A DNA stretch of 64,000 nucleotides from Pontibacter qinzhouensis. Lineage in GTDB: Bacteria > Bacteroidota > Bacteroidia > Cytophagales > Hymenobacteraceae. The position numbers were made by a program, and so were the translations under genes. Within the stretch, counting starts at the first letter, position 1. Each line of letters opens with the position of its first letter. A model generated the notes under the pieces. It did no database searches. It worked only from the letters and a program-made list of their open reading frames with translations, and was not told where the DNA came from. This document shows positions 10,040-49,095 of the stretch, one piece after another. Where the stretch lies: assembly GCF_008017455.1 (NCBI RefSeq), contig NZ_VRTY01000013.1:1-64000 (forward strand), given 5' to 3'.

Positions 10040-10040
10040 G

Positions 10041-10113: not shown

Positions 10114-10232
10114 GGTACTAACTGTTTCCCTGAAAGGGAGTGCAAAAGTAATCTTTTTGCTTTACTATCAAAAATTAATTTTAACTTTTTTCAATCTTCT
10201 CTGAATCAGACATCAAAAGTGTAAGAAAGAAA

Positions 10233-10257
10233 AAGCCTTCTCCTTAAGAAAAGGCTT
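10233..10257 (-). terminator. Terminator of tRNA-Lys copy 2
   Basis: Minus-strand stem AAGCCTT with AAGGCTT (10251-10257 and 10233-10239), followed on that strand by TTTC. It lies 15 bases beyond the tRNA 3' end. Confidence 0.7.
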
Positions 10258-10271
10258 CTGCTCACATCGTG

Positions 10272-10344
10272 TGATCCCGCTGGGATTCGAACCCAGGACC
10301 CATACATTAAAAGTGTATTGCTCTACCAGCTGAGCTACAGAATC
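10272..10344 (-). tRNA. tRNA-Lys (anticodon TTT), copy 2
   Basis: Same 73-base sequence and structure as the first copy, again without encoded CCA. The identical sequence with a separate terminator for each copy points to recent duplication or gene conversion. Confidence 0.95.
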
Positions 10345-30742: not shown

Positions 30743-30767
30743 TTTTGAATGAGTGAATGAGTGGGTG

Positions 30768-36047: not shown

Positions 36048-36579
36048 GAAGAAGTTATAAGTATTGTAAATTAATTTGGAGATGCTGTTATGAGTTATTT
36101 TGTAGTTCTTATACCTGCCGTGTTCTTATAAAGAACCTAGCATATCGAGGATTAAATGTATCTAAGAGCCGTTCCCAATTACTTAGAAACAGCAAAGCCC
36201 ATTGCAATTCTAGTTTAGAGGCTTGCAGCAATACATTTCTATACAAAGAGGGCTTCGAATTGATTTAGCTCATTATTGATTTACTCTGAAAGATGGTTAT
36301 TAAACTTCCGGCCTTAATAATATACTGAGCAAGTCAACGACTCTTAATTATTATATAATTTAAATATTTTGTACAAATATTTAAATTATTGCTGGCTACT
36401 ACAATACCCAGTTCTGGGTATTTTCAATATTAAATTGTTTTAAACAGGAAGAGCTTAGAATTAAGTTTCTGATCAGACTCCATATACTTACCTCTTGTTA
36501 CAGGTTAGACGTGGAGTTACTACCTTTGCTTGGAGACCTTTTTAAGGCAGATTTAATTTAATACTTACATTTGACTAAG
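36048..36579. other. AT-rich gene-free stretch
   Basis: 532 bases upstream of the lipoprotein gene and the transposase remnant. Very AT-rich around 36290-36440 and with no credible reading frame. No insertion-sequence end could be delimited. Confidence 0.5.
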
Positions 36580-36735
36580 ATGGAACGACGTATATTTGAC
36601 GCCTCCTTCAAACGGATGGCGATTGACCTTTCCTATGCGATGGGATCAGTAAAAGAGGTAGCCGAGGAGTTAGGAATCGATCCTGCCCGGCTGAGCAAAT
36701 GGCGGCAGAAGGAAAGTTCGCCATCAGGTAACTGA
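36580..36735 (+). mobile_element. IS3-type transposase OrfA remnant
   Basis: 51 codons: MERRIFDASFKRMAIDLSYAMGSVKEVAEELGIDPARLSKWRQKESSPSGN, then TGA. This is the helix-turn-helix N-terminus of IS3-family OrfA (typical pattern: FDxxFKxxAVxL...G.S..EVAxELGI....L.RWR). OrfA is normally about 90-100 residues; the leucine zipper, OrfB and terminal repeats are missing, so this is a relic. The DNA after it holds a family-B repeat. Confidence 0.8.
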
Positions 36736-36876
36736 CACCTTGCCAGTATGAAAACCTGTTATTCGACCAAGCTGTGGCTGCCTAAAAAAGTCTCCGAAAA
36801 ACATTGCAATTCCTCAAGGGTAGTTGCTGGTTTTCCTGAAATGGTTCTAAACTGTTCTTCTGCGACGCCCATAATT

Positions 36877-36908
36877 CGCTCGCAGGAGCTGCGAGGTCTT
36901 TGCTGCTC
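36877..36908 (+). repeat. Dispersed repeat, family B, copy 1
   Basis: GCTCGCAGGAGCTGCGAGGT, CTTTGCTGCTC. Core palindrome CTCGCAGGAGCTGCGAG. Counterparts are at 41001 (inverted, with a 7-base insertion) and 45269. Confidence 0.6.
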
Positions 36909-36946
36909 TTCTGCAGAACAACAAATAAACCATGTAAGCTATCAGC

Positions 36947-37004
36947 AATTATTCCAATAAAAATGGCCTTCAAAAGTATTTCAGCCTGTTTTGCCTCAAG
37001 GGTC
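36947..37004 (+). repeat. Dispersed intergenic repeat, family R, copy 11
   Basis: AATTATTCCAATAAAAATGG, CCTTCAAAAGT, ending CTCAAGGGTC. Full length; its CAAGGGT end lies 17 bases from the stop codon of the MotB-like gene. Confidence 0.75.
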
Positions 37005-37021
37005 CAGTGGCCTGAATTCTG

Positions 37022-37681
37022 CTATTTTACCTGCTTCACATCCAGTGTTCCCACCTTGGGCAGAATCTGGATGATGAAACGGCGGTCGCGTTCGTCGCCT
37101 GTTCTGCCTGCTCCTTCAAAACCACTGCCGGAGGCGATGAGCTCAATCTTGTCTTCGGGTAGTTTAATGCCGGCACTGCGCCAGAACTTTAGCAGCGCAA
37201 GGGCTCTGCGGTAGCTCAGTTCCAGGGCATAGTCGCGCTCGGTTATGTTGCGGAGGTCACCTTTAGGGTAGCTGGCAGCGCGGCCGTCAATCACGATCAG
37301 GTACTTTACATCGTCATCCTCAATGGAGTTCAGCACCTGACTCAGTTCCTCTCCTGCTCGGCGCAAAGGTGCCAGCGCCACCTGCGGTATTTCGGCGCGG
37401 CTAGGCTCGAACAGCACGTTTACCAGCAACTCGTGACGCTTGTACTTTTCGTTGTACTGAAAATACTTGGCATCGAGGCGCGACAGGGCGGCTTTAATTT
37501 CATCGAGCTTTTTCTTTTCCTCCAGTTGTACCTCCAGGCGGGCAAGCGTGTTGCGGTTTTCGTAGTCTTTGCTCTGGAACATTTTAAAACTTAGCACAAA
37601 CAGCACCAGCATTACGATGAAAAGCACCGTCATGAGGTCCACGTAGCTGGGCCAGAAAAAGTCTCTGTTCTCTTTGCTCAT
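37022..37681 (-). CDS. MotB/ZorB-like stator protein with OmpA-type C-terminal domain
   Basis: 219 residues. One N-terminal membrane helix (about 12-32, SYVDLMTVLFIVMLVLFVLSF) contains Asp15, which matches the conserved proton-carrying Asp of MotB and ZorB. A coiled coil follows (about 37-75, ENRNTLARLEVQLEEKKKLDEIKAALSRLDAKYF). The OmpA/MotB-like domain (about 82-210) has YLIVIDGRAAS, LSYRRALALLKFWRSAGIKL and DRRFIIQILPK, and would bind peptidoglycan. It is the last gene of the minus-strand cluster and starts 12 bases after the MotA-like stop codon. With its partner it should form an ion-driven 5:2-type inner-membrane motor. It is not flagellar: no flagellar genes are present. Confidence 0.88.
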   Translation of the reverse strand: MSKENRDFFWPSYVDLMTVLFIVMLVLFVLSFKMFQSKDYENRNTLARLEVQLEEKKKLDEIKAALSRLDAKYFQYNEKYKRHELLVNVLFEPSRAEIPQVALAPLRRAGEELSQVLNSIEDDDVKYLIVIDGRAASYPKGDLRNITERDYALELSYRRALALLKFWRSAGIKLPEDKIELIASGSGFEGAGRTGDERDRRFIIQILPKVGTLDVKQVK

Positions 37682-37693
37682 GCGCCTGCCTGG

Positions 37694-39484
37694 TTAACCA
37701 ACTCTGCGATTGCTGCTGCTGTTGCCTCCAAAAATCTTCTGGAAAGCAGCCTTCACTGGTCCTGGTTCTGCACTTTTCACCAGGAAAGCATTCAGTTCCC
37801 GTAGCTGCTGGAGCATCTGCTGCTGAACCTGGGAGTCAGTTTCCAGTTTCTGAAGGAGTCGTTCGTTTGTAACACCAATATTGTCGGAAAGCTGCCGCTG
37901 CTGGGTGTTCAGGTTGTTTTGCTGCTGGTTCAGGTTTTCGAAAGGCCGCATATAATCTACAATGCGCTGGTATACGTTGTCTTCGTTTAGCAGCCTGAAA
38001 TGCTCCTGCCATTTGGCGTAGGCATTCTGTGCATCCCGCTCCTGGTGTTGCAGGCGCGCTTCCATCAGGTCGGTGAGTTTAAGAGCGGCTTTATCGAAAT
38101 ACTGTTCGGTGCGGCTGGCGATGTCGGTTAGTTCCTGCTCGTGCCTGCCAAAAAAGTTGATCTGCCGCTGTATGGATTCGTCGTGTTTCTGGAGGTAACC
38201 CGGCACTTGGTCAAAGCCATCCTGCAGGCTTGTGAGCCGCGAGAGCACCTGCTCTATGTTGTTCGTGAGCGCAGCACCTTTCTCCACCGACTGATTCAGG
38301 GCCTCCTGGTATTTCATAAAGTTCATGAAGAGCTTTTCGCTTTCCTTAATCTTATCAAACACCATCATGTTGGCATTTGCCATTTGCGTAAAGCCAATCT
38401 CATCCAGCTTCTGAATAAACTCCTTCTGCACACTGATGTTCTCGGTCAGGCTATCTACAATGGGCCGGAAACCTAAAATTTTATCCAGGAAATCTTTGTT
38501 GAACGAATCGAGTACCGACTTCAGGTTGCCAAGGCTGGCGGCCATGTCGGAGTTGAGCTTGGGCAGCAAGTTGGTCTGCAGAAAGGTGTAGTAGGTGTTT
38601 TTCTGCATGTCGCGCTTGCTGCGGGCATTTTTGAGCGCCTGGTTCCCCATCAGCGTGAGCAGAAGCCCCAGAAAGCTACCGGCCATGGCAATTAACACAC
38701 CAAACAGGAACGACGGAATGTTCTGATCTGTAATGAAAGGAGAGAGTGTTTCAACACCCTCTGCTGCCTCTGGTGCCCGGAGGCCACTCCATACCAGGCT
38801 CGACAAGCCAATGATTACCCCCGAAAAAGTACCCAGCAAACCTACATACAACGGTGTGGCAATTGTAGCCTGTACCTCTGCATCCAACGACTCCGAGTGC
38901 CGCTCCGACACATCTTTCAATATTTCGAAATCAGCGGCGGCTCCTTTGTTGCGTTTCAAGTACTCGTTGGTGCTCCTGATAATTTTGCTGAAAGTAGGTG
39001 ATGGGTTGCTTACCTCCAGCAAATCGAAGGCGACTGGCTCTTGGTTAAGACCTGCTGCCTCAGTGGGTGTTGGAGGCTGCTGACCGGTAGCATCCGGGAA
39101 AAGAATCTTTCCATCTTCGAGCAGCTTCCGCAGCCTGTCTTTTGCCACATTGTACTGCTGCACCGCCTCCCCGTTCCGGGCATCAATCCGGACTTCATCT
39201 TTTTCAACTTTAATTGCCCTGATGAGCACCGGGTTAAGCAGCGAGTATTCTTTAAACGGCTTGCCCGCCAGCAGTTCTTCCCACTGCTGATTGACAGAGA
39301 TTCCACTCACAGCGCCAGCACCTTCGCCTGGCGTAAACACACTTTCTTTTAAAGCCAACTGGTGCTCCGAAGGGTACAGCTCCTCAATCGCCCTGATCTT
39401 CAGTTTGTTCCCTTTGTACACGTACAACTGGTACCCCAGAATAATCAGGATTAAAATACTTTCAATGAGAAATATACCTTCCAT
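37694..39484 (-). CDS. MotA/TolQ/ExbB-like (ZorA-like) channel protein with long cytoplasmic tail
   Basis: 596 residues. Membrane helix 1 lies at about 5-22 (FLIESILILIILGYQLYVY). A cytoplasmic insert of about 180 residues follows. Helix 2 (about 207-232, ATIATPLYVGLLGTFSGVIIGLSSLV) carries the family signature TPLxxGLLGTxxG. Helix 3 lies at about 256-280 (IPSFLFGVLIAMAGSFLGLLLTLMG). About 315 residues of predominantly helical, Gln- and Leu-rich coiled coil then extend into the cytoplasm (about 290-580). A long tail of this kind is the hallmark of ZorA in Zorya defence and differs from flagellar MotA or ExbB. It pairs with the MotB-like gene 12 bases downstream. Zorya's ZorC/ZorD/ZorE genes are absent. 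Confidence 0.88.
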   Translation of the reverse strand: MEGIFLIESILILIILGYQLYVYKGNKLKIRAIEELYPSEHQLALKESVFTPGEGAGAVSGISVNQQWEELLAGKPFKEYSLLNPVLIRAIKVEKDEVRIDARNGEAVQQYNVAKDRLRKLLEDGKILFPDATGQQPPTPTEAAGLNQEPVAFDLLEVSNPSPTFSKIIRSTNEYLKRNKGAAADFEILKDVSERHSESLDAEVQATIATPLYVGLLGTFSGVIIGLSSLVWSGLRAPEAAEGVETLSPFITDQNIPSFLFGVLIAMAGSFLGLLLTLMGNQALKNARSKRDMQKNTYYTFLQTNLLPKLNSDMAASLGNLKSVLDSFNKDFLDKILGFRPIVDSLTENISVQKEFIQKLDEIGFTQMANANMMVFDKIKESEKLFMNFMKYQEALNQSVEKGAALTNNIEQVLSRLTSLQDGFDQVPGYLQKHDESIQRQINFFGRHEQELTDIASRTEQYFDKAALKLTDLMEARLQHQERDAQNAYAKWQEHFRLLNEDNVYQRIVDYMRPFENLNQQQNNLNTQQRQLSDNIGVTNERLLQKLETDSQVQQQMLQQLRELNAFLVKSAEPGPVKAAFQKIFGGNSSSNRRVG

Positions 39485-39491
39485 GGCTTTT

Positions 39492-39660
39492 AAATTTTGA
39501 ATGAGTGGATGAGTGGATATTAGATTTGAAAATTTGAAGATTTGGAAATTCTTAAATCTTCAAATCACATCTCTACTCTTTCATAATGTAAGAATTCATT
39601 CATCCATTTAATCACTCTTTCAAAGTTGTAATTCACTCATCCACTCATTCAAAATTAAAA
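39492..39660. repeat. Simple phrase arrays between two cluster genes
   Basis: The 185-base gap is almost entirely repetitive. TTTGAATGAGTGGATGAGTG (39495-39514) is followed by AATTTGAAGATTTGGAAATT phrases and, inverted, ATTCACTCATCCACTCATTC (39633-39652). The outer arrays are inverted copies of one another and could pair. Confidence 0.6.
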
Positions 39661-39669
39661 CGAAGTGTC

Positions 39670-40662
39670 TTATCTGAAATCGATTTTTGCTTTTTCCTGA
39701 ATTCTCCACCCATTACCGACTCTGGCCAGAATGCCATCGTCTTGCAGTACCACCTGGCTTACTTTGCGGTTAGAGGGTTTTTCGAAGCTGAAGGCATTCT
39801 CCAGCCGGTCAATTCCCTGAGAGATAACGAAGGCCTGGTTACCTGACAGGTTGAAGCGGTAACGGGTAGTGTTGCTGTTGCCATCTTGCGGCGTGTCTAC
39901 TTCCAGGTAGCTGTCGGAGTCGGGTTGCTGCTGCAGTTGGTGCTGCTTTATAACACCGTCTTCCGGAATAATGGCATATTGCCTGGTGGCTCTTGCCGGC
40001 TTGCGCTCCTGTTGCTGCTCCCGCTGCTCTTTACGCTCCGGCTGTTGCTCCCGCTGGTCTCTAAGCTCCGGCTCTGCCCGCTCCTGCTGCTGATTCCGCT
40101 GGTTTCGCCTTTCCAACTCCGGCTCTGTACGGTCCGGCTGTTGCTCCCGCTGGTTTCTTCGTTCCCGCTGCTCGCCCTGCTGCCCTCTTGGCTCCCGCTG
40201 TTCGCGTGGTTCGCGCTGTTCTCTGTGCTGGGCCCTTGGAGAACTGGCAATATTTATTTCTGCAGCACCAGGCTCATCGCTTGCCACACTACGTGACCGC
40301 TGTTGCGGTGCTTGCTGCTCTGGCTGGTCGTTTTGCTGCGGTTTTTTAAACTCGTTGCGTCTTTTGGGCTGTCGGGCCTGCTGTGTCTCCTGCTGCGCAT
40401 CAGCGGTTCTGCCAGGAACGGTTGTCATCACGCGTGAAGTCTGCTGTACAGGTTTAGCCGCAGGAGCAGACTCCTGGCGCTTGCCACCCCCTCTGCTGGC
40501 CATTCCACGGATCTCGCTCAGCTGATGCTCCAGAATACTGTTGCGGTCTTTCAGCCGCTCCAGTTTACCAGATAAAGCTCTGTTGTAAGTATTTACTTTG
40601 AGTAAGGCTACAACAGCCACTAAAACAGCTATAATGCTCACTATAATCGATGCGTATTCCAT
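39670..40662 (-). CDS. Membrane-anchored protein with disordered Arg/Glu/Gln-rich middle
   Basis: 330 residues in three parts. Residues about 3-22 are one membrane helix (YASIIVSIIAVLVAVVALLKV) followed by a short coiled coil (NRALSGKLERLKDRNSILEHQLSEI). Residues about 55-225 are a low-complexity linker rich in Arg, Glu, Gln and Pro, with repeats such as REQREPREQREPRGQQGEQR. Residues about 230-330 are a compact domain (YAIIPEDGVIKQHQ...TRYRFNLSGNQAFVISQGIDRLENAFSFEKPS...VVLQDDGILARVGNGWRIQEKAKIDF). I do not recognise the C-terminal domain. Its place between the stator genes and the actin-like gene suggests a tether or adaptor between membrane and cytoskeletal components. Confidence 0.8.
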   Translation of the reverse strand: MEYASIIVSIIAVLVAVVALLKVNTYNRALSGKLERLKDRNSILEHQLSEIRGMASRGGGKRQESAPAAKPVQQTSRVMTTVPGRTADAQQETQQARQPKRRNEFKKPQQNDQPEQQAPQQRSRSVASDEPGAAEINIASSPRAQHREQREPREQREPRGQQGEQRERRNQREQQPDRTEPELERRNQRNQQQERAEPELRDQREQQPERKEQREQQQERKPARATRQYAIIPEDGVIKQHQLQQQPDSDSYLEVDTPQDGNSNTTRYRFNLSGNQAFVISQGIDRLENAFSFEKPSNRKVSQVVLQDDGILARVGNGWRIQEKAKIDFR

Positions 40663-40783
40663 ACACCACTTGCTTAGTTATGAAGTTTATTTTCTAAAAA
40701 GGCCACATGTGAAAGCGCTACCAATTAGCTGGTTGCCACTCGTGCCGGTTCGTTTTACAAAAGTCGTTATTTAAATTGGCTTT

Positions 40784-40843
40784 TTACCCTTGAGCCATTT
40801 TCGGCAAATTTCCTTCCGAAGGTCAATTTCATCAGAATAATTT
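40784..40843 (-). repeat. Dispersed intergenic repeat, family R, copy 12
   Basis: Reverse complement AAATTATTCTGATGAAATTG, ACCTTCGGAAGG, AAATTTGCCGAAAATGGCTC, AAGGGTAAAA. Full length, in the 460-base gap between two cluster genes. Confidence 0.8.
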
Positions 40844-40942
40844 AGTGGGCTACGCCAAATTCAAAATTAGAAATTAAAAATAATGAAAAGCTTAGGGAGC
40901 AGCCTTTGCCAGTAAGCACCCTCAGCCTCGTGTCTCAAAAAA

Positions 40943-40974
40943 ACCTTCGGAAGGCCTATTTTATTAGAATAATC
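40943..40974 (-). repeat. Dispersed intergenic repeat, family R, copy 13 (partial)
   Basis: Reverse complement GATTATTCTAATAAAATAGG, CCTTCCGAAGG. Only the left half is clear; second R copy in the same gap, same orientation as copy 12. Confidence 0.65.
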
Positions 40975-41000
40975 TGATTGTTAAATGGTTAACATGAGAA

Positions 41001-41042
41001 TGAGCAGCAAAGACCTCGCAGTGAGCGCAGCTCCTGCGAGTG
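41001..41042 (-). repeat. Dispersed repeat, family B, copy 2
   Basis: Reverse complement CACTCGCAGGAGCTGCGCTC, ACTGCGAGGTCTTTGCTGCT: inverted copy of 36877-36908 with seven extra bases in the middle. Confidence 0.6.
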
Positions 41043-41087
41043 TCTGGCCGAAGCAGATCGGACATCAAAACCAGGTTCAAAAAAATC

Positions 41088-41119
41088 TATTATCTAATAT
41101 CTAGCATCTAACATCTAAA
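41088..41119. repeat. Simple phrase repeat (TATCTAATATCTAGCATCTA)
   Basis: Same wording as 14277-14316. It abuts the stop codon of the actin-like gene. Confidence 0.5.
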
Positions 41120-41122
41120 AAG

Positions 41123-44100
41123 CTAGTGTTGCTGCTGCTGGTACAGTTCTTTCGACAAGAGGTAAAGCGACTGCTTGAGCGGCATAAAGAACATCGTCTC
41201 CGGCAGCAGTTCCCGGTCGCTCAGGCCTCGGAGTGTGTCTTCCAGCACCATGGTCAGGCTGTCCTGCATGTTGGCTTTCATAAAGTCCAGCACCTGCAGC
41301 GGGTCTACCTCCACGCCCATAGAGCGCATGAGCGGTGCCACATCGTTATCGTCGAGCAGGAGTTGGAGGCAATCCATTACGTTGTCGAGCACTTCCTGGC
41401 GAAGCGTGCCGGTGATCTGGCTCTTGTTTACCGGCTTCAGCGCGTCTTCTTCGGTAGCAGCACCAGTCGGACGAATAATCGGAATGTCGGTGAGGTCGGA
41501 GAGGTTGGTACCTTCCAGGGCCATAGCGCCTCCGTTAGCCGTTACCTGTTTCGGGTTATCGACCAACACGAGCTTAAAGTTGGCCGGTGGCTCCTGCCCT
41601 GTTACCTTCCTGAACACGAGCTTCGCATAGCGCTCCACATTTGAGAGGTTGTTGCCGGCACTCAGCAGTTTAATGTACAAGCTGCCCTGCCCGCTGAAGC
41701 AGATGTAGCGAGGTGTCTGCACATCGAGCTGCTTCACAAGCTGCGCCAGGTGGTACATCAGCGCGCCAAAGTGCAGGTAGAACATCAGGCGCAGCTGCCG
41801 GGCCTGCAACAGCTGCGAGCTGTAGTGCAGTTCTTTGTCGTAGCTGAACAGCAAACTGGTAATATCGGCAGAGCTGAAGTCGGGGTTATCTAAGGCTGTT
41901 TCGAGGAACTTGCGGTACTCTTTGCCTTCTTCGGTGAGCGGAATGCGTAGCACATGCGCCACGCCATATTGCAGCAAGCCATTGTCTTTACTGGTTTTTA
42001 CGGTAGCAAAACCATCGCCCCACAAATCGTTGCCGGCAAAACGGAAGGAGGAGCTGTGCGAAGGTTTCCGGTTGGTGAACAGCAATACGTCGGTAGTACC
42101 ACCGCCTATATCCACGTTTATCAGGTTCTCATCCTGGCTTGGCACCACAGCACCCGTTCTGGACAGGAAATAATAAGGTGCCACCGATTCGGTGATGCAC
42201 ACGGTTGTTCTGTCGTTGCGGAATACTTTGTTGTACACGCCATCCCACACGTTCTGGAACATGTTGCGCGAATATTCATCGAAGCTCAGCGGCGCAAACC
42301 ATACAATTTTGGTATTGGCCACGTTGCCATGGTTCAGCACCACCTTGTTGCGGAGCAGCAGCATAATTTCGGTAAAAAACGCTTCGATGCGCCGTTTGCC
42401 GGTGTTGGTCAGCGTTTCGCTCCACTTCAGGTCGGTATGGTAGGTCTGCTTGTACTGGTCCTGGTGTGTGCCTTCGGTATTAATAGAAAAGCCAATGTTG
42501 ATATTCCCGAACAAATTCGGAATCTGGTTCTCAAAATCAATCGATTCGCAGGTAGCCGTGCGGGTCGGGAAGGAATACAAGGAGCCACCGGAGCCGATGA
42601 TCAGCGGAATGAACTCCCGCTTCAGCAGTGTTTCCACGGCAAACAACCTGCCGAAGCCGCGCTTATGGAAACGCTGGTAATCGGTGAGCGAAGGGTCGTC
42701 GGATGGCTTGTTGAGCATAACCAGTTGCAGATCGTTGGCCGTAATGGAGAACTCTTTCGGAGCCTGGTTCGCACCGGAGGTGTAGGCGATGTGGGTGTTG
42801 GAGGTTCCAAAATCCACAGCAAAAGTAAAGTTCTGTATCCCCTGCTGCACTTCCTGGAAACGCGGCACGATCAGGGCTCTTCCCGAAATGTCTACGCCTG
42901 CGTGTGTGAACTCGGCAAAGTCGAAGTGTGTACCCTTAATTTCGTAATAGGTGCTGCCGGCGCTGCTGTTGCTCTTTTTGGTACGCCGATGTGCTGTGGC
43001 AGATATAATGCCGCCCCCAGCCTCCAGTTGCTTGCCGCCCGCAAAAAACGACAGATCGTGGTTCCGGTTCAGCAACAGCGGATCGATGTCCTCATCTACC
43101 AGCATCACCTTATAAAAGTCGTTGTAAGCGGTGGCGTCGGTAAACTTGTAGAACGGGAAAATACCCAACCCTACCCTTGATTTCAGAATATGTCCTTTCT
43201 CCGGTATCAATTCCCCGTTGGCATCTTTGGGGTTTAGCGGATTATCGTAATAACTGCGCTCGTACACCACGCTGCCACTCTCCGTTGGCACCTGCAGCGT
43301 AACCCGCACATGGTTTACATCAATGTAAAAAGTCAGGTGGTTGGCCAGGTCCTGCGCCGTAAAAAACTCAAAATACAGGCTCGTGATGGGCAGCAGGTAA
43401 TTGAATGATTTTTCGGTAACCCCCGGTTGGTACACCACCGTGCCACTGTAGAAACGGTCGGTGTTTACCTCGTAAGGCACCTGCACCAACGTCTCCTGCA
43501 GCAGGTCGTTTATGGTGATGTAGGGGTAGTTAAAGCCTACGCCAGGTAACGAGCGGTTCGGAATGGCTTTGCTATCGGAATAGCCTACGCTGGTGTTGGC
43601 AGGCCAGGCCAGGTTGTTCACGTATTTCACGTTTGGTGCCAGCCGCAGATCCGGTTTCAGCACAATAGGGCGTTCGCCTGCAAAAGCCGGGTTCGTAGGC
43701 CGCAGGAACAGGTCGCTGCTCGTAACGGCTGTCTGGTCTTTTCGCACCAGGAACGTTAAGTGCCCCACATGCACCGGGTTCTGCTGATAATCTACAAGAG
43801 GCGCAAAGTCAGCTGCCAATGCATTGGTTCCTACTGCCCCAGACATAGCCAGGCTCCGGAGCATGCCTTCGTCCAGTGAGCCATACACTGCCGGAAAAGC
43901 CTGAATATAAGCTGCATTGGAAGCAAAGAGTTTATGCACATATTCTTTGAAATCATGTGCCCGCTCCTGTAGCCCCACATAGCGGTTATCGAAGTAAGTG
44001 CCACCATTTTGCGCCCTGTTAATAGAAAGCGGCTGCACACTCGGCGACACAAACAGGAAGGTAAGCGGTGATGTTCCGCCTATCAATTGCATGTGCCGGT

Positions 44101-44557
44101 TGCTGGTTTCGAAGTAAAAAAGGAAGATATCTTCGATGCCCTGGAAGCGCCTGTCGTTCAGGAACAGCTCCAGCGTTTTGCCCAGCAGGTTCGTGCCAGT
44201 GTTCGCTTTCATGGCTGCCAGTTGCTGGTGCTTGTTCCAGCGCCTGACAATAATTTTGTTGCCGGCCTGGGCGTAACTTTCGTGGTTGTAGAGCAGCTCC
44301 CACAGGTCCCAGAAGTGGGTTACCATTTTGTGGTAGATGCTGCTGTTAGTATCGGCCACCCCCTGCCGCACAAATTCGAAAGCTGTTTCGAAGAGGTGCA
44401 TGCGGGCAAAAGGAGTCGGAATGGAGGCATTTATCTTCTGAGCCCGGCCACCTGCACCATCTACTATATCTTTAATTTCGGTACTGGTTATCTGGCTTGT
44501 TTTAGCCCAACCTTCTACGTTAGATCCGGTTTTATGAAGACGAAGTACTTTCGGCAT
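41123..44557 (-). CDS. Actin/Hsp70-fold ATPase with large N-terminal region (SrfB-like)
   Basis: 1144 residues from the ATG at 44555-44557; an upstream TTG would add 12. The C-terminal half has the sugar-kinase/Hsp70/actin ATP-binding motifs: phosphate 1 FAVDFGTSNTHIAY (Asp582), phosphate 2 INVDIGGGTTDVLLF (Asp816) and an adenosine-type motif YICFSGQGSLYIKLLS. The first 570 residues are a beta-rich region I do not recognise. Size and order recall the virulence-factor SrfB family, which is often encoded with SrfA/SrfC; those are absent here. No membrane segment, so it is cytoplasmic. With a tubulin-like protein and a stator pair in the same cluster, a role in an energised cytoskeletal machine is plausible but inferred. 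Confidence 0.85.
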   Translation of the reverse strand: MPKVLRLHKTGSNVEGWAKTSQITSTEIKDIVDGAGGRAQKINASIPTPFARMHLFETAFEFVRQGVADTNSSIYHKMVTHFWDLWELLYNHESYAQAGNKIIVRRWNKHQQLAAMKANTGTNLLGKTLELFLNDRRFQGIEDIFLFYFETSNRHMQLIGGTSPLTFLFVSPSVQPLSINRAQNGGTYFDNRYVGLQERAHDFKEYVHKLFASNAAYIQAFPAVYGSLDEGMLRSLAMSGAVGTNALAADFAPLVDYQQNPVHVGHLTFLVRKDQTAVTSSDLFLRPTNPAFAGERPIVLKPDLRLAPNVKYVNNLAWPANTSVGYSDSKAIPNRSLPGVGFNYPYITINDLLQETLVQVPYEVNTDRFYSGTVVYQPGVTEKSFNYLLPITSLYFEFFTAQDLANHLTFYIDVNHVRVTLQVPTESGSVVYERSYYDNPLNPKDANGELIPEKGHILKSRVGLGIFPFYKFTDATAYNDFYKVMLVDEDIDPLLLNRNHDLSFFAGGKQLEAGGGIISATAHRRTKKSNSSAGSTYYEIKGTHFDFAEFTHAGVDISGRALIVPRFQEVQQGIQNFTFAVDFGTSNTHIAYTSGANQAPKEFSITANDLQLVMLNKPSDDPSLTDYQRFHKRGFGRLFAVETLLKREFIPLIIGSGGSLYSFPTRTATCESIDFENQIPNLFGNINIGFSINTEGTHQDQYKQTYHTDLKWSETLTNTGKRRIEAFFTEIMLLLRNKVVLNHGNVANTKIVWFAPLSFDEYSRNMFQNVWDGVYNKVFRNDRTTVCITESVAPYYFLSRTGAVVPSQDENLINVDIGGGTTDVLLFTNRKPSHSSSFRFAGNDLWGDGFATVKTSKDNGLLQYGVAHVLRIPLTEEGKEYRKFLETALDNPDFSSADITSLLFSYDKELHYSSQLLQARQLRLMFYLHFGALMYHLAQLVKQLDVQTPRYICFSGQGSLYIKLLSAGNNLSNVERYAKLVFRKVTGQEPPANFKLVLVDNPKQVTANGGAMALEGTNLSDLTDIPIIRPTGAATEEDALKPVNKSQITGTLRQEVLDNVMDCLQLLLDDNDVAPLMRSMGVEVDPLQVLDFMKANMQDSLTMVLEDTLRGLSDRELLPETMFFMPLKQSLYLLSKELYQQQQH

Positions 44558-44584
44558 ATTGAGTCTGTTTAGGTATTTTATAAA

Positions 44585-44609
44585 AGGACACAAGTATCAG
44601 TACATAAGA
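44585..44609 (+). repeat. 25-bp dispersed repeat, family C, copy 3 (diverged)
   Basis: AGGACACAAGTATCAGTACA, TAAGA. It differs from the other two copies at three positions and lies just upstream of the actin-like gene. Confidence 0.6.
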
Positions 44610-44684
44610 TATAAGACTATCTTTCTTCTGCTACTGATCTTTATCCAACTTCGTAAATTGAAGCTAATTTTCACTTTCTACTAC

Positions 44685-44722
44685 AAATTATTCTAATGAA
44701 AATGGCCTTCCGAAGGCTTTTT
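44685..44722 (+). repeat. Dispersed intergenic repeat, family R, copy 14
   Basis: AAATTATTCTAATGAAAATG, GCCTTCCGAAGGC, TTTTT. A perfect consensus left half; the right end is not recognisable and is replaced by the family-E repeat that follows at 44769. Confidence 0.75.
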
Positions 44723-44768
44723 TAGGTTGTAGACTTTAAGCCTATAGCAGAATACTGCTCCCCGCCTT

Positions 44769-44798
44769 TGTCATCCTGAAAGGATCTTGTGAGCGAGA
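44769..44798 (+). repeat. 30-bp repeat, family E, left copy flanking the GIY-YIG gene
   Basis: TGTCATCCTGAAAGGATCTT, GTGAGCGAGA. It is an inverted match (29 of 30) to 45126-45155 on the other side of the GIY-YIG gene. The arm CCTGAAAGG is itself nearly palindromic. Confidence 0.85.
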
Positions 44799-44812
44799 TC
44801 CGAAAACGATAG

Positions 44813-45109
44813 CTACTGCCGTACCTCCAGAAACATCAGCAACGGATTCTCCTGTTTTATCAAATCCAGCTTGTCCTCTCTGCTCATAAGCTTTATCTCT
44901 TTCTCCCGCTCAATCGCGTGTTGTACGTGAGTGTAACGCTCGTAGTACAGCAGCTTATAGCAATAGTAGCGTCCGGCAAAGGAGTCAGGCTTTCCCCGAT
45001 TCTGCCTATGCTGCTCCAGTCTTACGCTCAGATCATTCGTTACACCAACGTACAGCACCTTTTTACCAGGATTTGTCATGATGTAAACGAAATAGTTGTG
45101 ATCTTTCAT
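44813..45109 (-). CDS. GIY-YIG family endonuclease-like protein
   Basis: 98 residues, the usual size of stand-alone GIY-YIG (UvrC-N-like) proteins. The motif pair is FVYIMTN (GIY position) and LYVGVTND (YIG position). Arg30 in DLSVRLEQH and the Glu in HAIEREKEIK match the catalytic Arg and metal-binding Glu. Such proteins are abundant in Bacteroidota and mostly uncharacterised. This one is framed by near-perfect inverted 30-bp repeats (44769-44798; 45126-45155, with another at 45194-45223) inside the gap between two cluster genes, which suggests it arrived as a small mobile unit rather than belonging to the cluster. Confidence 0.9.
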   Translation of the reverse strand: MKDHNYFVYIMTNPGKKVLYVGVTNDLSVRLEQHRQNRGKPDSFAGRYYCYKLLYYERYTHVQHAIEREKEIKLMSREDKLDLIKQENPLLMFLEVRQ

Positions 45110-45125
45110 AGCTCCGGTTCATGCA

Positions 45126-45155
45126 TCTCGCCCACAAGATCCTTTCAGGATGACA
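45126..45155 (-). repeat. 30-bp repeat, family E, first right copy
   Basis: Reverse complement TGTCATCCTGAAAGGATCTT, GTGGGCGAGA. One difference from the left copy. Confidence 0.85.
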
Positions 45156-45193
45156 ATGGGAGAGAATGTGTGATTATAGATAACATTTCTGTT

Positions 45194-45223
45194 TCTCGCC
45201 CACAAGATCCTTTTTGGATGACA
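45194..45223 (-). repeat. 30-bp repeat, family E, second right copy
   Basis: Reverse complement TGTCATCCAAAAAGGATCTT, GTGGGCGAGA. Two differences from 45126-45155; same orientation, 68 bases further on. Confidence 0.8.
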
Positions 45224-45268
45224 ATTTAAAGAAAGTAAAAGTCCTCTTCGCATCTGTACTTCCCTCAG

Positions 45269-45307
45269 ACGCTCGCAGGTCTGGAAGACGCTGCGAGGTC
45301 TTTTGAG
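45269..45307 (+). repeat. Dispersed repeat, family B, copy 3
   Basis: ACGCTCGCAGGTCTGGAAGA, CGCTGCGAGGTCTTTTGAG. The arms CTCGCAGG and CTGCGAGG match the other two copies; the middle differs. The rest of the gap ends in the phrase AATTTCTAATTTTGAATTTC. Confidence 0.55.
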
Positions 45308-45372
45308 CCGGCTGCCCTCAGGTCGAATAATTTCTAATTTTGAATTTCTAATTTGGAGTAGCGCAGCGCGAC

Positions 45373-46824
45373 CTAAGCGTATTTCAGCTTACTGTCTACC
45401 AATGCTTCCGTAGCAGCTTCAAAGGCTTTGATTGTCGCTTTGTAAGCATCTCGGTCGGAGATGGATTCGGAGGCGCGGTTCAGTTCTTTCACGAAGGCGC
45501 CCTGGTGAATGCCTTTGTTCAGGAAACCTGTCTCTATCTGTTTGTCGGCCACCATGCGGTTAAAGTCCGTTTCGTTTATGTTGAGCGCGGCAAAAGTTCT
45601 GTCTTTCCGGTTCAGCTCTTTTAGCCAGGTCTGGTAGCCAAAATCGGGGTGCGTCAGGAACTTGTTCAGCTCTTTAAAGATCGGCTCGTTTCGGAGGGCG
45701 CTGGTCAGGTCTACGCCTTTGGCATAAGCCGCCTGTGCATCGTCGGGCATGTGGGCTGTGTAGTAGCGTTCGAAGTAGTGGAAGCGGATCAACTGCTTGG
45801 CAACCCGGTCGCGGGTTTCCTGGTCGAGGTGCGAAAACTGCACATGGCTCACGTCTTCGCGCAGGCCAAACTCATGGTACACCTCCGCCCCCGACAGCTC
45901 ATTATCGGAGTAATCCATAAAGTCTACAATCGCCAGGGCACTCAGCAGCTCCACCAGGTGCGCATCGTTTTTCTGACTGGCACGGCCTGGGTTGTTCTCC
46001 AACGGTTTATCAGGCGTATCGCCCATGTAATACACAGCATTTACGCCGCCCAGGTGGTGCTGGTAGTACGACAACGCATCTTTGGCTTTGGTCGTGAAAG
46101 CGTTGGAGTCAATAAAATCGGCCTGAACACCGGCTGCAGGTTGCTCTAAAGAGAAGTAAGGCAGTACCACCATAGCACCAGTCAGGGCGCTGTTCAGGCT
46201 GGCCGCGTTGGGAAGCGTGGTATGCACATCCTTAAAGTTCTTGAGCAGCAGCGGGAAACCGGCTGCACCAGTTCCTCCAAAAATAGAACTCACAAAGAAA
46301 ATACGATCACCGGCCTGAAAGTTAGAGGCGAAAAAGCGCATTTCCGGCGAGTCGATGATCTCGTTGAGTACCACGCTGCCCACGTTCGGGCTGCCTCTGA
46401 AACCCACATCGAGGCTGTTGCTGAGGTTTTCAGGCGTAAACAGCAGGTCCACGAGCGCCTGGCTGTCTATGTCGAGCTGGTTGTAGCCCACATGGTCTTT
46501 AAACGGTTTGTTGATGCCGCCAAAGTCGTACACAAAACTGTCTCTGATCTTGCCTGTGCCATCGCCGGCAATGCTGGAGAGGGTGCTGATATCGGTATGG
46601 AAGAAGCCTTCTTCTCTCCTGCCAAGTCCGTCGTGCAGGTGCTTGTAAGTTTTGAGCAACTCGACCGTGCGGTTCATGTCGCCGTTCTGCGTGTCAGGGT
46701 CTATGATGATCGGTACTATTTTATCACAGTTCTGAATCTTGACACCAGCGGCCATCAGCATCACCAGCGAGCGGATAACTCTGGAGCCTGTGCCGCCAAT
46801 TCCGAATACAAAAAGCTTTGCCAT
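45373..46824 (-). CDS. Tubulin/FtsZ-like GTPase-fold protein
   Basis: 483 residues. It opens with KLFVFGIGGTGSRVIRSLVML (nucleotide-binding GxGGxG, residues 7-15), followed by an acidic loop VPIIIDPDTQNGDMNRT (about 38-54). The tubulin signature-like loop is FGGTGAAGFPLLLKNF (182-197), equivalent to GGGTGSG of tubulin/FtsZ. This matches the bacterial 'tubulin-like' (Tubulin_2) group rather than FtsZ or TubZ. No membrane segment. It begins 3 bases after the stop codon of the small membrane protein and belongs to the same transcript. Whether it polymerises or hydrolyses GTP is not known from sequence. Confidence 0.85.
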   Translation of the reverse strand: MAKLFVFGIGGTGSRVIRSLVMLMAAGVKIQNCDKIVPIIIDPDTQNGDMNRTVELLKTYKHLHDGLGRREEGFFHTDISTLSSIAGDGTGKIRDSFVYDFGGINKPFKDHVGYNQLDIDSQALVDLLFTPENLSNSLDVGFRGSPNVGSVVLNEIIDSPEMRFFASNFQAGDRIFFVSSIFGGTGAAGFPLLLKNFKDVHTTLPNAASLNSALTGAMVVLPYFSLEQPAAGVQADFIDSNAFTTKAKDALSYYQHHLGGVNAVYYMGDTPDKPLENNPGRASQKNDAHLVELLSALAIVDFMDYSDNELSGAEVYHEFGLREDVSHVQFSHLDQETRDRVAKQLIRFHYFERYYTAHMPDDAQAAYAKGVDLTSALRNEPIFKELNKFLTHPDFGYQTWLKELNRKDRTFAALNINETDFNRMVADKQIETGFLNKGIHQGAFVKELNRASESISDRDAYKATIKAFEAATEALVDSKLKYA

Positions 46825-46827
46825 AGG

Positions 46828-47241
46828 TTATCGTTTATGAGGCCATTTCATGGGGGTTGTCCATGCCTGCACGGAGCCTCTTTTCAGGAGAATGGAGAAA
46901 AGGAAAAATAAAATCAGGCTATACACCATGTTCACAAAGGCAAACATGTAGGTATAGGAGTGCGATTCGATGCCATTGCTGTTAACCTGAACAATAGGTA
47001 TGATAAACGCGATGATAGCATTGAGCACCAGAAAAAGCACCCAATGCTGGGTTTTGTAAAAGCCTGTACTCATCATGCGGTTCAGCACATAATAATAAAT
47101 AACCACCAGCGCCAGCGAGATAATAAAAAGCTGCAAACCTGTGTTCGGAAAAACCACCTCGCGGTAGTCGTTCGTGAAGTTTGCAGGCATAGGCCGGCCT
47201 AAAATGAGCTCATAAAGCCCCGCGAAAAAGTTCTGTATCAT
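46828..47241 (-). CDS. Small integral membrane protein of the cluster
   Basis: 137 residues with three membrane helices: about 35-55 (GLQLFIISLALVVIYYYVLN), about 65-85 (HWVLFLVLNAIIAFIIPIVQV) and about 97-120 (YMFAFVNMVYSLILFFLFSILL). The N-terminus FFAGLYELILGRPMPANF and the C-terminal KWPHKR are short. I know no family for it. It lies 2 bases downstream of the lipoprotein gene and 3 bases upstream of the tubulin-like gene, so all three are translationally linked. Confidence 0.85.
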   Translation of the reverse strand: MIQNFFAGLYELILGRPMPANFTNDYREVVFPNTGLQLFIISLALVVIYYYVLNRMMSTGFYKTQHWVLFLVLNAIIAFIIPIVQVNSNGIESHSYTYMFAFVNMVYSLILFFLFSILLKRGSVQAWTTPMKWPHKR

Positions 47242-47243
47242 AC

Positions 47244-48590
47244 TTAATCTGCTTTGTTAAAATCCATGGTTAAACTGAATACGTGCTTACGCTGATCCCG
47301 GTACAAGGCTTGAACGCCATCTATTATTTTGTTGAACTGGTAGGTTTTCTTTGGGTCTGCTGCCGGATCGTTGTCGTTTTCGGTCGACCAGTTTTCGATC
47401 CAGGTGGGCACCACCTGCTGCAGTTGCAGGGCCAGTGTGCCTTTGTTAGCGGTTAGCTCCGGCACGTTTACCTGCACAAAATGCGTATAGCCAGCCAGTT
47501 CAGGTATGGCCTTGGTGTCTTCCGTTGCGGCTGAAATGTCGCCTATAGTTGCCCGGCAGCCGGTTGCTGCCAGTTTCAGATTGCGCTTCAGGTAGGCCAG
47601 CTCCTGCATAGAGGCAGGCAGCGTGTTCAGGTCCACACCAATAGTGAACGACACCGGCTCGTCCTTTTGCGGCTGTATATTTACGGAAGTACAGGTTTCG
47701 GCAGTGCGGGAGGTGCAGTACACCACGCCAGCCGGTCTGAACTGTTTCGACTTTAAAACGGCAGAGTAAGGCAATGTAGTATAGCCGAAGCCAAAGTAAG
47801 CCTGCTGCGCCGGCAGGTTCCGGAGCACCTTATTTGTAACCACCTGTACTTCCTGCTGCTTGCCGATTACCCAGATGTAGTACGGTATTTCCTCGCCATC
47901 GAGTTTTTTGCTGACAGCCGGTTTCTTTACGGCCGGATAGTAAGAACCATAAAACGAAGAAGCATCGGCCAGTACAGCCACCACCAGCCCTTTGTGCTCG
48001 GCCAGTTTCAGGCTGCTCCTGATGTCGGAGTCCAGGGAAATAAACTGTCCCTGGTCGCGTGGGTCGGGACCATGAATAAAGTCTGATACGATGATGCTGA
48101 CAGTGTTTTGTGCCACCGACTTTTCGAGGGCGGCCTGTAACATGGCCGGTAAGGGTGTGCCCAGTACATTGGCTTTAATGCCGCTCACGACTGTGCTTTT
48201 CAGCGTGCTGTAAGAAACGCTGTCGAGCACCGGGCGGCCCTGGTTGTCTTGCTTAGCCAGGTAATAGCTTTTAGAATCCACATAAATGCCGTCCTGCACT
48301 TCAGAAATCATTTTATTTAAGCGGCTCTGAAATTCGGTGGGTTTTCTTCCGGCTTCGGCAGGTGGCATAAAGCCTTTCATGCCGTTCGATACCTCGAGGT
48401 ACAGGTTTACATCTACTTTAGAACTTTCGGCTGGCGCCGTAGTCGTAGTGCGCGGCTCGTCTTTCTGTTCAACTGTAGCAGTAGCCTCCCCGGTTTCTTC
48501 GCCGCTACTTTCTTTTTTGTAGCAACCAGAAACAACCAGCAGCAGGCTCAGCAGCAAATAAAGGCTGCTTACAGACTTTGTTATAGGCAT
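47244..48590 (-). CDS. Lipoprotein with von Willebrand factor A-like fold
   Basis: 448 residues. Lipoprotein signal (SLYLLLSLLLVVSGC, Cys23), then a Thr/Glu-rich linker (about 25-58). The next 170 residues look like a vWA-type domain: first strand VNLYLEVSNGMKGFMPP (MIDAS-like position, but Glu-x-Ser rather than Asp-x-Ser) and later VSIIVSDFIHGPDPRDQ and LVVAVLADASSFYGSYYP. The C-terminal 200 residues are a second domain I do not recognise. It is the first gene of the cluster; nothing coding lies within 500 bases upstream, so the promoter is probably in 48591-48870. Probably periplasmic or outer-membrane facing. Confidence 0.78.
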   Translation of the reverse strand: MPITKSVSSLYLLLSLLLVVSGCYKKESSGEETGEATATVEQKDEPRTTTTAPAESSKVDVNLYLEVSNGMKGFMPPAEAGRKPTEFQSRLNKMISEVQDGIYVDSKSYYLAKQDNQGRPVLDSVSYSTLKSTVVSGIKANVLGTPLPAMLQAALEKSVAQNTVSIIVSDFIHGPDPRDQGQFISLDSDIRSSLKLAEHKGLVVAVLADASSFYGSYYPAVKKPAVSKKLDGEEIPYYIWVIGKQQEVQVVTNKVLRNLPAQQAYFGFGYTTLPYSAVLKSKQFRPAGVVYCTSRTAETCTSVNIQPQKDEPVSFTIGVDLNTLPASMQELAYLKRNLKLAATGCRATIGDISAATEDTKAIPELAGYTHFVQVNVPELTANKGTLALQLQQVVPTWIENWSTENDNDPAADPKKTYQFNKIIDGVQALYRDQRKHVFSLTMDFNKAD

Positions 48591-49095
48591 TTATTTTTTA
48601 GTAAGATGTTAGATGCTGGACATTATTTGTTTTGTGTTAAAAAGCTAGTTTCCGCTCAGCAACACATTTCCTCTTTGTAAATCTATCAAAATTAATCTGA
48701 TCTACTAATGCACAGAAGTTTATTCGGCCTTCCTTCCGGCTTGTTTTTCACTTTCAGGAAATCCTATGAACGATTTCTTAAACGATTAGATACAATAGCT
48801 ATTATATATTATGAAGACAATCTATTTAAAGATTTACAAATCAATGCCTTATAATACATCTAACCAGAAAAAGCCTTGATACCTGAGACTGCATTTGAGC
48901 GTCGGAAGGCTATTTTCATTAGAAAAATTGCTGCTGGATGTTTGTTGGTCCCTGTTGCTTAATTATCTGAATCATAGAAGTTCGTGATTACACAGAATTT
49001 ATAGAGAGATAAAAAACCGGCTATATATCCGCGTAATCTGCGTTATCCAGGTAATCCGTGATTCGGACCAACAGCAGGAATTCAGATGGGAAATA
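48591..49095. other. 505-base gap upstream of the cytoskeletal/stator cluster
   Basis: It contains one R-family repeat (48872) and AT-rich DNA in which the cluster promoter should lie. Lone Bacteroidota-type -7 boxes cannot be told from background here, so I mark none. Confidence 0.5.
48872..48929 (-). repeat. Dispersed intergenic repeat, family R, copy 15
   Basis: Reverse complement AATTTTTCTAATGAAAATAG, CCTTCCGACGC, ending TCAAGGC. Moderately diverged, full length. Confidence 0.7.

What the first reader, a model, noticed from the sequence alone, without database searches (positions are those of the whole stretch)
37022..48590. Stator-plus-cytoskeleton cluster: MotAB/ZorAB-like pair with actin-like and tubulin-like proteins
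Seen: seven cluster genes on one strand encode a vWA-like lipoprotein, a 3-helix membrane protein, a tubulin-like protein (GxGGxG and FGGTGAAG), an actin/Hsp70-like 1144-residue protein (FAVDFGTSNT and INVDIGGGTTD), a membrane-anchored disordered linker protein, a ZorA/MotA-like channel with a 315-residue cytoplasmic tail, and a MotB-like OmpA protein with the key Asp15. Spacings of 2, 3 and 12 bases tie members together. Known: MotAB/ZorAB pairs are ion-driven motors; actin and tubulin folds make dynamic filaments. Inference: an envelope-spanning machine in which a proton- or sodium-driven stator acts on or is gated by cytoskeletal elements. Defence, surface motility, secretion or envelope remodelling are all possible. 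No Zorya ZorC/D/E, flagellar, gliding or secretion genes accompany it.
Basis: partly seen in the sequence, partly recalled or inferred. Interest (0 to 1): 0.88.

Follow-up and report, generated by a model that had tools for sequence, protein, structure and literature searches.

The report
Ion motor linked to tubulin-actin system
In Pontibacter and its relatives a membrane ion-channel motor resembling one used in phage defence is encoded together with a tubulin-like protein, an actin-like protein and three envelope proteins; a similar core without the motor turns up even in cyanobacteria, so this looks like an old, unstudied cell-envelope machine.

Summary
Seven same-strand genes at 37022-48590 encode a vWA-like lipoprotein, a 3-TM protein, a tubulin-like protein, a 1144-aa actin/Hsp70-like protein, a membrane linker, a ZorA-like channel and a ZorB-like partner. 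All seven occur in the same order in 28 of 28 related loci fetched. In 120 family genomes the tubulin and ZorA genes are both present (94) or both absent (26), 6.1-8.4 kb apart. The motor is an add-on: vWA, TM, tubulin and actin genes, usually with the linker, also occur without it in other Bacteroidota, and in cyanobacteria with a linker-like protein recognised only by eye. Every strong ZorA match found lay in a tubulin-positive genome. Among Pontibacter and near genera the tubulin is about as conserved as FtsZ, but not in Hymenobacter. Best reading: a cell-envelope machine in which ion flow and wall contact act, through the ZorA tail, on a membrane-tethered tubulin/actin NTPase assembly. No paper listed in nine searches shows this set; nearest are FtsZl1/vWA/OmpA operons, GAP1-N2 systems and Zorya.

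The parts
47244..48590 (-). vWA-like lipoprotein (448 aa), core gene 1; MIDAS-like motif LYLEVSNGM and second Asp in IVSDF
   Evidence: hhalign to 30 VWA_2 proteins: Prob 79%, P=1.6e-5; lipobox pattern in 25 of 29; Asp170 invariant in 9 of 9; cyanobacterial rows read DGSGSM or DASGSM
46828..47241 (-). three-TM membrane protein (137 aa), core gene 2
   Evidence: (28 of 28 loci)
45373..46824 (-). tubulin/FtsZ-like protein (483 aa), core gene 3; T1-like GIGGTG and T4-like GGTGAAG loops
   Evidence: at E<=0.1: PF00091 in 28 of 29 members, PF13809 in 27 of 29
44813..45109 (-). GIY-YIG ORF (98 aa), a passenger in the tubulin-actin gap, not part of the system
   Evidence: 6 of 28 loci; flanking repeats
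41123..44557 (-). actin/Hsp70-superfamily protein (1144 aa), core gene 4; both phosphate loops in the C-terminal half, N-terminal ~570 aa unassigned
   Evidence: (D582, G584, T585, E790, D816, G818-G820, D823 invariant in 22 of 22)
39670..40662 (-). linker protein (330 aa), core gene 5; N-terminal TM, low-complexity middle, conserved C-terminal segment
   Evidence: (28 of 28 loci)
37694..39484 (-). ZorA/MotA-like channel subunit (596 aa): 3 TM and a conserved ~315-aa cytoplasmic tail
37022..37681 (-). ZorB/MotB-like partner (219 aa): one TM with Asp15, OmpA-like periplasmic domain
   Evidence: best PDB profile hit 8VVN_B, 1e-15; 16 of 16 hit ZorB1 models

Best explanation
The locus encodes one cell-envelope machine made of an ancient core and an ion-driven stator. 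Core: a vWA-like lipoprotein outside the inner membrane, a 3-TM protein, a tubulin-like GTP-binding protein, an actin/Hsp70-like ATPase, and a linker whose conserved C-terminal segment faces the cytoplasm and tethers the two NTPases to the membrane. Stator: a ZorAB-type complex whose periplasmic domain contacts the cell wall, whose intramembrane Asp conducts H+ or Na+, and whose long conserved ZorA tail reaches the cytoplasmic assembly. Proposed working: wall or envelope perturbation engages ZorB and opens ion flow; movement of the ZorA tail changes the nucleotide state or assembly of the tubulin/actin-like pair at the membrane; that assembly with the vWA lipoprotein then remodels or stabilises the envelope. 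Lineages without the stator carry other proteins in its place, some with envelope-type domains (SH3-like, L,D-transpeptidase, trypsin-like, WG repeat), so the core is a platform and the stator one of several inputs or power units. Shown: gene set, order, co-inheritance of the tubulin and ZorA genes, modularity, intact stator and ATP-binding motifs. Inferred: topology, stoichiometry, direct contact, NTPase activity, filament formation and the envelope function.
For: All seven genes in order in 28 of 28 loci. In the family, tubulin and ZorA genes co-occur in 94 and are both absent in 26 of 120 genomes, none discordant, same contig 94 of 94, 6060-8449 bases apart. In the phylum sample the 7 strong ZorA matches of 395 genomes are all tubulin-positive. 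A second, divergent, complete set in one genome of the window's genus (G615) keeps all seven genes in order with gaps of -14 to 16 bases. The most distant Bacteroidota relative, L101, has ZorB-like (5e-5), vWA (3e-8), tubulin, actin (9e-16) and ZorA-like (7e-6) genes together, with a 3-TM and a linker-like protein by position and topology only. The ZorA tail (285-400) is as conserved as the pore: 79-87% against 75-86% in six genomes of Pontibacter and near genera, 49% against 47% in Hymenobacter. Asp15 and Trp10 of the ZorB-like protein and Thr219 and Ser270 of the ZorA-like protein are invariant in 16 of 16. In stator-less loci SH3_3 (1e-4, under cut-off), YkuD (9e-22), trypsin-like (1e-25) and WG-repeat (4e-10) proteins follow the core. 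Tubulin 85-91% against full-length FtsZ 73-88% identity in five genomes of Pontibacter and near genera.
Against: In the window the genes may form several transcription units (gaps of 815, 460, 185 bases; palindromes in the gaps). The FtsZ comparison does not hold throughout the family: in Hymenobacter (L030) tubulin is 53% against FtsZ 67%, and FtsZ's GTPase part alone (85-97% in the five genomes) is as conserved or more so. The Asp of the OmpA-like G-x-T-D motif is present in only 1 of 16 ZorB-like members, though Arg159 is in 16 of 16, so wall binding is doubtful. I could not make out a conserved catalytic T7 Asp in the tubulin-like family (by eye). TerD, HSP70 and PP2C neighbours in some relatives fit stress or conflict systems as well. 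At least 20 genomes of the window's genus lack both the tubulin and the ZorA gene, so they are dispensable. In G004 no motB match lies beside zorA. The phylum search with ZorA scored at most 3 candidates a genome and also gave 4 weak matches (8e-6 to 6e-4) in genomes without a tubulin match.
Confidence: 0.43

Rival explanations
1. An anti-phage or stress-conflict system of a new type: the ZorAB-like complex senses phage-caused envelope damage, as proposed for Zorya, and the tubulin/actin pair assembles as the effector or switch.
For: Stator partners are ZorAB-like. Relatives carry TerD, HSP70, PP2C and trypsin genes, themes of the systems in PMC7159879 (sections 28 and 29 read). A second divergent copy in G615 and plasmid copies in cyanobacteria show mobility. 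Patchy within the window's genus: at least 20 genomes without.
Against: Not patchy in the rest of the family as far as listed (94 of 120 positive; the 20 absences listed are all in the window's genus, 6 are not listed). Tubulin about as conserved as FtsZ among Pontibacter and near genera, though not in Hymenobacter. None of 10 chosen flanking proteins hits a Zorya model. No nuclease or other toxic effector recognised among the seven. The tubulin protein has no match in 50,697 phage records and no relative among 73 pattern stretches of viral contigs.
Confidence: 0.29
2. A motility, surface-organelle or secretion machine: the stator drives movement of an envelope structure and the tubulin/actin proteins position it.
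For: Non-flagellar stators power gliding and secretion in other bacteria (PMC12505986, passages; PMC11890865 abstract).
Against: The four flanking window genes compared do not travel with the cluster (one found in 2 of 28 loci, three in none); the core persists without the stator. Pilus, gliding and secretion genes were not searched for by profile, so this rival is weakly tested.
Confidence: 0.1
3. The stator pair and the tubulin/actin core are separate systems that merely travel together.
For: The core occurs without the stator in 10 of 21 four-gene loci and in cyanobacteria; the stator label changes at least 4 times on the tubulin tree; gaps in the window are large.
Against: 94 of 94 co-occurrence with no exception in 120 genomes; both parts kept in G004 although split into two loci 230 kb apart, with act, linker-position and zorA genes together; tight second set in G615.
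Confidence: 0.1

Closest known systems
FtsZl1 (Tubulin_2, PF13809) / vWA / GTPase / OmpA predicted membrane-remodelling system (Makarova and Koonin 2010, PMC2875224; text parts 1 and 2 of 5 read, plus passages)
   Same: Divergent FtsZ-tubulin family protein next to a vWA protein, membrane proteins and, in some genomes, an OmpA-type protein; scattered over phyla.
   Different: FtsZl1 proteins mostly have a coiled coil and helical C-terminal domain, and their operons often carry a P-loop GTPase or kinase; here the tubulin has 483 aa, an actin/Hsp70-like gene follows it, and a ZorAB-like stator is present. In the main text MotB, Hsp70 and stator do not occur and actin is not named as a neighbour (find); its additional files were not seen.
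GAP1-N2 GTPase-centred systems with tubulin, HSP70 and vWA proteins (Kaur et al. 2020, PMC7159879; sections 28 and 29 read, plus passages)
   Same: Tubulin or HSP70 and vWA proteins near the membrane with wall-binding domains on partner proteins.
   Different: Built on DO-GTPases and GAP1, mainly in actinobacteria, firmicutes, planctomycetes, verrucomicrobia and chloroflexi; MotA, MotB and stator do not occur in the text (finds).
Zorya ZorAB (PMC11890865, passages; PDB 8VVN, 8VVI; PDB 8QYD, labelled 'membrane protein', which I take for ZorB since 8QYH of the same set is named ZorA)
   Same: Channel subunit with long cytoplasmic tail plus OmpA-type partner with the intramembrane Asp; best PDB match of the ZorB-like profile is 8VVN_B.
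   Different: No ZorC/D/E hit among 10 chosen neighbours; partners are tubulin, actin, vWA, TM and linker proteins.
MotAB, ExbBD, TolQR stators (PF01618)
   Same: TM2-TM3 region GLLGTF...GVLIAM aligns in register with MotA_ExbB (Prob 50%, P=1.6e-4).
   Different: The window protein does not hit PF01618 by hmmscan, nor does that model find it in the genome.

Membership tests
Zorya | ZorB-like partner with intramembrane Asp | tested here: met
   16 of 16 members hit ZorB1 models at E<=0.01; Asp15 invariant in 16 of 16
Zorya | ZorA channel subunit with long tail | tested here: inconclusive
   Window protein itself hits no ZorA model; at most 5 of 16 members hit a given ZorA model, best 1.2e-8, and coiled-coil families score similarly; TM region aligns with MotA_ExbB
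Zorya | adjacent ZorC/ZorD or ZorE effector | tested here: not met
   10 chosen flanking proteins against PADLOC: no Zor hit; not searched genome-wide
Zorya | anti-phage activity | not testable with these tools
   needs plating assays
FtsZl1 system | Tubulin_2-type FtsZ domain | tested here: inconclusive
   PF13809 E=0.0012, under cut-off, in the window protein; 27 of 29 members match at E<=0.1, best 3.2e-9
FtsZl1 system | coiled coil plus helical C-terminal domain of a long FtsZl1 protein | tested here: not met
   by length only: 483 aa, members used are 469-576 aa; no coiled-coil program was run
FtsZl1 system | vWA neighbour | tested here: met
FtsZl1 system | P-loop GTPase neighbour | tested here: not met
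   no GTPase among the 7 window genes (Pfam)
GAP1-N2 systems | DO-GTPase and GAP1 components | tested here: inconclusive
   Pfam and NCBIfam on the window genes show no GTPase; no GAP1 profile was run
Flagellar MotAB | flagellar genes alongside | not tested
   no search for flagellar genes was made

The most novel reading that the evidence does not exclude
A categorically new molecular machine: a proton- or sodium-driven 5:2 stator whose cytoplasmic tail works directly on a membrane-tethered assembly that contains both a tubulin-like and an actin-like NTPase, i.e. ion-motive force used to control a two-component cytoskeleton across the envelope, built on a core old enough to be shared by Bacteroidota and Cyanobacteriota.
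Probability: 0.35. Interest if true: 0.92.

Novelty: new variant of a known kind. Interest (0 to 1): 0.76.

Why it matters
From recall, I know of no bacterial gene set that holds an actin- and a tubulin-family protein as standing partners, and of no stator said to act on such proteins. If the coupling is real, it would add a new output for the 5:2 ion motors, give a handle on what a ZorA-type tail touches, and place an unstudied envelope system in genera where it is common and so genetically testable. It also extends the 2010 FtsZl1 prediction towards a defined core with interchangeable envelope modules.

Tried and rejected
Classical Zorya: rejected as membership, no effector hit among 10 chosen neighbours. 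GIY-YIG ORF as a member: rejected, 6 of 28 loci. Linker as mere disorder: rejected, related proteins follow the actin gene with or without the stator. Virus-borne system: the tubulin protein has no match in phage records; 73 pattern stretches in viral contigs, none a relative, two short patterns used. Rfam on 36000-49600: nothing. PDB profile search for the vWA protein: nothing. Pfam on its 22 members: no vWA family, one weak DUF58 match. The PDB search with the ZorA profile was swamped by coiled coils; 8QYH ZorA came only at 0.11 and TolQ at 0.026, so I do not count it.

Mistakes corrected: I took ORFs from the wrong strand of some loci, since genome-search loci are not turned; one search repeats it with strands set (30 + 30 proteins) and only its values are used. 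The FtsZ columns suffer from the same error; FtsZ values are. One locus of 38 (L077) gave no HMM match in my ORF set although the genome search had matched it; it counts as a miss. Control P values range from 0.13 to 0.47 in seven of eight pairs; the eighth (tubulin against vWA set) was 0.017. E-values for loci whose proteins had gone into the profiles are inflated by that. On checking this report against the calls I found that the FtsZ comparison fails in Hymenobacter, which is in the same family, and therefore moved the best explanation from 0.45 to 0.43 and the conflict rival from 0.27 to 0.29.


Full report
Observation. The seven genes lie at 37022-48590, all on the - strand. The stated motifs, the 1144-aa length (ATG at 44557), the 2-, 3- and 12-base gaps and Asp15 are right. 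The other gaps are 815, 460 and 185 bases, so one transcript is not shown for this genome. The nearest named relative is Pontibacter beigongshangensis (tubulin 99% identical).

What the proteins are. MotB-like: 16 of 16 aligned members match ZorB1 models at E<=0.01 and the family profile's best solved structure is type I ZorB 8VVN_B (E=1e-15), then 8QYD (4e-8), ahead of flagellar MotB 6YSF (5e-7, OmpA part only) (8VVN is named in PMC11890865). Trp10 and Asp15 are invariant in 16 of 16, as is Arg159 of the LS-x-x-RA stretch, but the Asp of the G-x-T-D motif is in only 1 of 16, so wall binding is open. ZorA-like: three TM stretches by hydropathy, Thr219 and Ser270 invariant in 16 of 16, TM region aligned in register with 30 MotA_ExbB proteins (Prob 50%, P=1.6e-4); at most 5 of 16 members hit a given ZorA model and the window protein none. 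Its tail (285-400) is 79-87% identical in six genomes of Pontibacter and near genera, against 75-86% for the pore and 33-40% for the first cytoplasmic loop; in Hymenobacter the three figures are 49, 47 and 18. Such conservation suggests a specific partner. Tubulin-like: at E<=0.1, PF00091 in 28 and PF13809 in 27 of 29 members. Actin-like: both phosphate loops and Glu790 invariant in 22 of 22, best structure hit 8r2n 5e-5, then MreB, Hsp70, FtsA; the first ~570 residues are unassigned. vWA-like: no vWA family in Pfam and no PDB hit, but profile alignment to 30 VWA_2 proteins (Prob 79%, P=1.6e-5) puts LYLEVSNGM on the MIDAS motif, and cyanobacterial homologues have DGSGSM or DASGSM at that place. 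Linker: see below.

Conserved as a set. A scan of the collection of 84,980 species genomes with the tubulin protein gave 28 loci (Pontibacter, Rufibacter, Sabulibacter, Botryobacter, one Hymenobacter); the method finds close relatives only. All seven genes lie in order in 28 of 28 (by tblastn the linker was missed in L013, by ORF comparison found). GIY-YIG is in 6 of 28. In 120 family genomes, tubulin and ZorA are both present in 94 and both absent in 26, on the same contig in 94 of 94, 6060-8449 bases apart; the 20 absent genomes listed all belong to the window's genus, 6 are not listed. The other five genes were not searched for in these 120. Relatedness makes the Fisher value meaningless as a probability, but there is no discordant genome. 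G615 holds a second, divergent, complete set with gaps of -14 to 16 bases, followed by a trypsin-like lipoprotein and, further on, a PP2C gene.

The core is larger than the stator. The tubulin profile matched 47 of 194 genomes of the order and 13 of 395 of the phylum. Of 38 regions fetched, 21 hold vWA, TM, tubulin and actin genes together; 10 of these also hold zorA and motB, one (L071) is cut by the contig end (its genome has zorA), and 10 have none. Of the other 17: six have the tubulin gene alone, five tubulin and actin, three lack only act (two of them at contig ends), one (L098) is broken but keeps zorA and motB parts, one (L101) is a distant set with zorA and motB, one (L077) gave nothing. 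The genomes of the 10 stator-less loci have no ZorA match at E<=0.001. Of 395 phylum genomes, 11 have a ZorA match; the 7 strong ones (E<=2e-42) are all tubulin-positive, the 4 weak ones (8e-6 to 6e-4) are not; at most 3 candidates a genome were scored, so matches may have been missed. On the tubulin tree the stator label needs 5 changes, at least 4 forced. In G004 the set is split: vWA-TM-tubulin at 3.36 Mb, actin, a protein at the linker's place, and zorA at 3.59 Mb, with no motB match beside it.

The linker. The protein after the actin gene falls, with counterparts in stator-less loci, into one single-linkage cluster of 31 proteins (blastp E<=1e-3). The cluster also takes in four second-position proteins, so coiled coils may have loosened it, and it leaves out those of L096 and L101. 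In an alignment of 26 C-termini most end in a G-x-W-type pattern; 21 of the 26 proteins have an internal TM, four (Pontibacter and near genera) start at the TM, one shows none. With the linker the core has five genes in Bacteroidota.

Beyond Bacteroidota. Of 6 plasmid records with a tubulin match I read four. Plasmids of Picosynechococcus PCC 7003, Synechococcus NIES-970 and Gloeothece carry lipoprotein (vWA profile 8e-9 to 2e-14), a 3-4-TM protein by hydropathy, tubulin (2e-66 to 6e-70) and actin (3e-19 to 4e-35) genes. The next protein looks linker-like at its end by eye, but the linker profile did not match it. No zorA or motB match under 1e-3 was seen in the stretch printed; the NIES-970 stretch also holds an annotated ExbB/ExbD pair beside a TonB receptor, ~10 kb away. 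In Gloeothece the vWA gene is on the other strand. A Prevotella record (L199) has all five core genes and no stator.

What follows the core without a stator. From 5 of the 10 stator-less loci 12 proteins were tested: SH3_3 (1e-4, below cut-off), YkuD (9e-22), trypsin-like (1e-25) and WG repeat (4e-10) were found; the other eight gave no family over its cut-off. More distant sets carry TerD (1e-70), HSP70 (2e-77) and an OmpA protein (3e-19). Envelope themes are frequent, stress/conflict themes are present.

Tempo. Identity of the window's proteins to those of L004, L016, L019, L020, L025: tubulin 91, 90, 88, 87, 85; actin 85, 87, 85, 85, 84; FtsZ full length 84, 88, 75, 73, 85, its GTPase part 93, 97, 85, 85, 95. 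In Hymenobacter L030, of the same family, tubulin is 53 against FtsZ 67; farther out (L072, L075, L076, L101) tubulin (54, 42, 42, 26) is again below FtsZ (60, 58, 49, 44). So purifying selection is strong among Pontibacter and near genera, and ordinary beyond.

Mechanism. The best reading and rivals are given in their sections. Shown: set, order, co-inheritance of two marker genes, modularity, intact motifs. Inferred: direct contact between ZorA tail and the NTPases, filament formation, wall sensing, function.

Literature. Nine searches of the open-licence PMC library listed no paper with this gene set; I saw listings only, and only the first 20 of 263, 20 of 255 and 10 of 16. Nearest: PMC2875224 (parts 1 and 2 of 5 read, passages), PMC7159879 (sections 28, 29 and passages), PMC11890865, PMC12505986 and PMC9871819 (passages). 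Subscription journals are not covered.

Noticed in passing
window 44769-45223: Copies of TGTCATCCTGAAAGGATC in opposite orientations flank the GIY-YIG ORF (4 matches with up to 3 mismatches in the window, three of them here, 0.05 expected). Small GIY-YIG ORFs lie in the same tubulin-actin gap in 6 of 28 relatives, and an ORF that looks like one (by eye) beside the actin gene of a distant relative (L087). Looks like a small mobile or REP-like element.
   Followed up: partly
window, e.g. 11331, 40944, 44705, 55658: The near-palindrome GCCTTCCGAAGG (up to 2 mismatches, both strands counted) gives 25 matches against 5.1 expected, including gaps of this cluster; possibly bidirectional terminators or a repeat family.
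   Followed up: partly
L125:1809-16281: A genome of the window's genus (G615) carries a second, divergent complete set followed by a trypsin-like lipoprotein, further small proteins, a protein with a DQSGSM motif and a PP2C gene.
   Followed up: partly
L126:4665-13178: Another family genome has vWA-, tubulin- and actin-like genes followed by a DnaK/HSP70-like gene and no stator match in the stretch.
   Followed up: partly
L100:1987-14107: A distant member of the phylum has tubulin and actin-like genes followed by three proteins of one family (two of the three tested: TerD, E=1e-70 and 4e-51) and an OmpA protein.
   Followed up: partly
L089:6068-11355: In one family genome (G087) the tubulin and the actin gene are each broken into two ORFs while zorA and motB are whole; decay or sequencing error.
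   Followed up: no
window 30128-30756: An adenylylsulfate-kinase-like reading frame (by eye) appears split over two overlapping ORFs; a similar-looking 218-aa ORF lies near the cluster in L127.
   Followed up: no
window 10040-10344: Two tRNA-Lys genes with the same anticodon in tandem.
   Followed up: no
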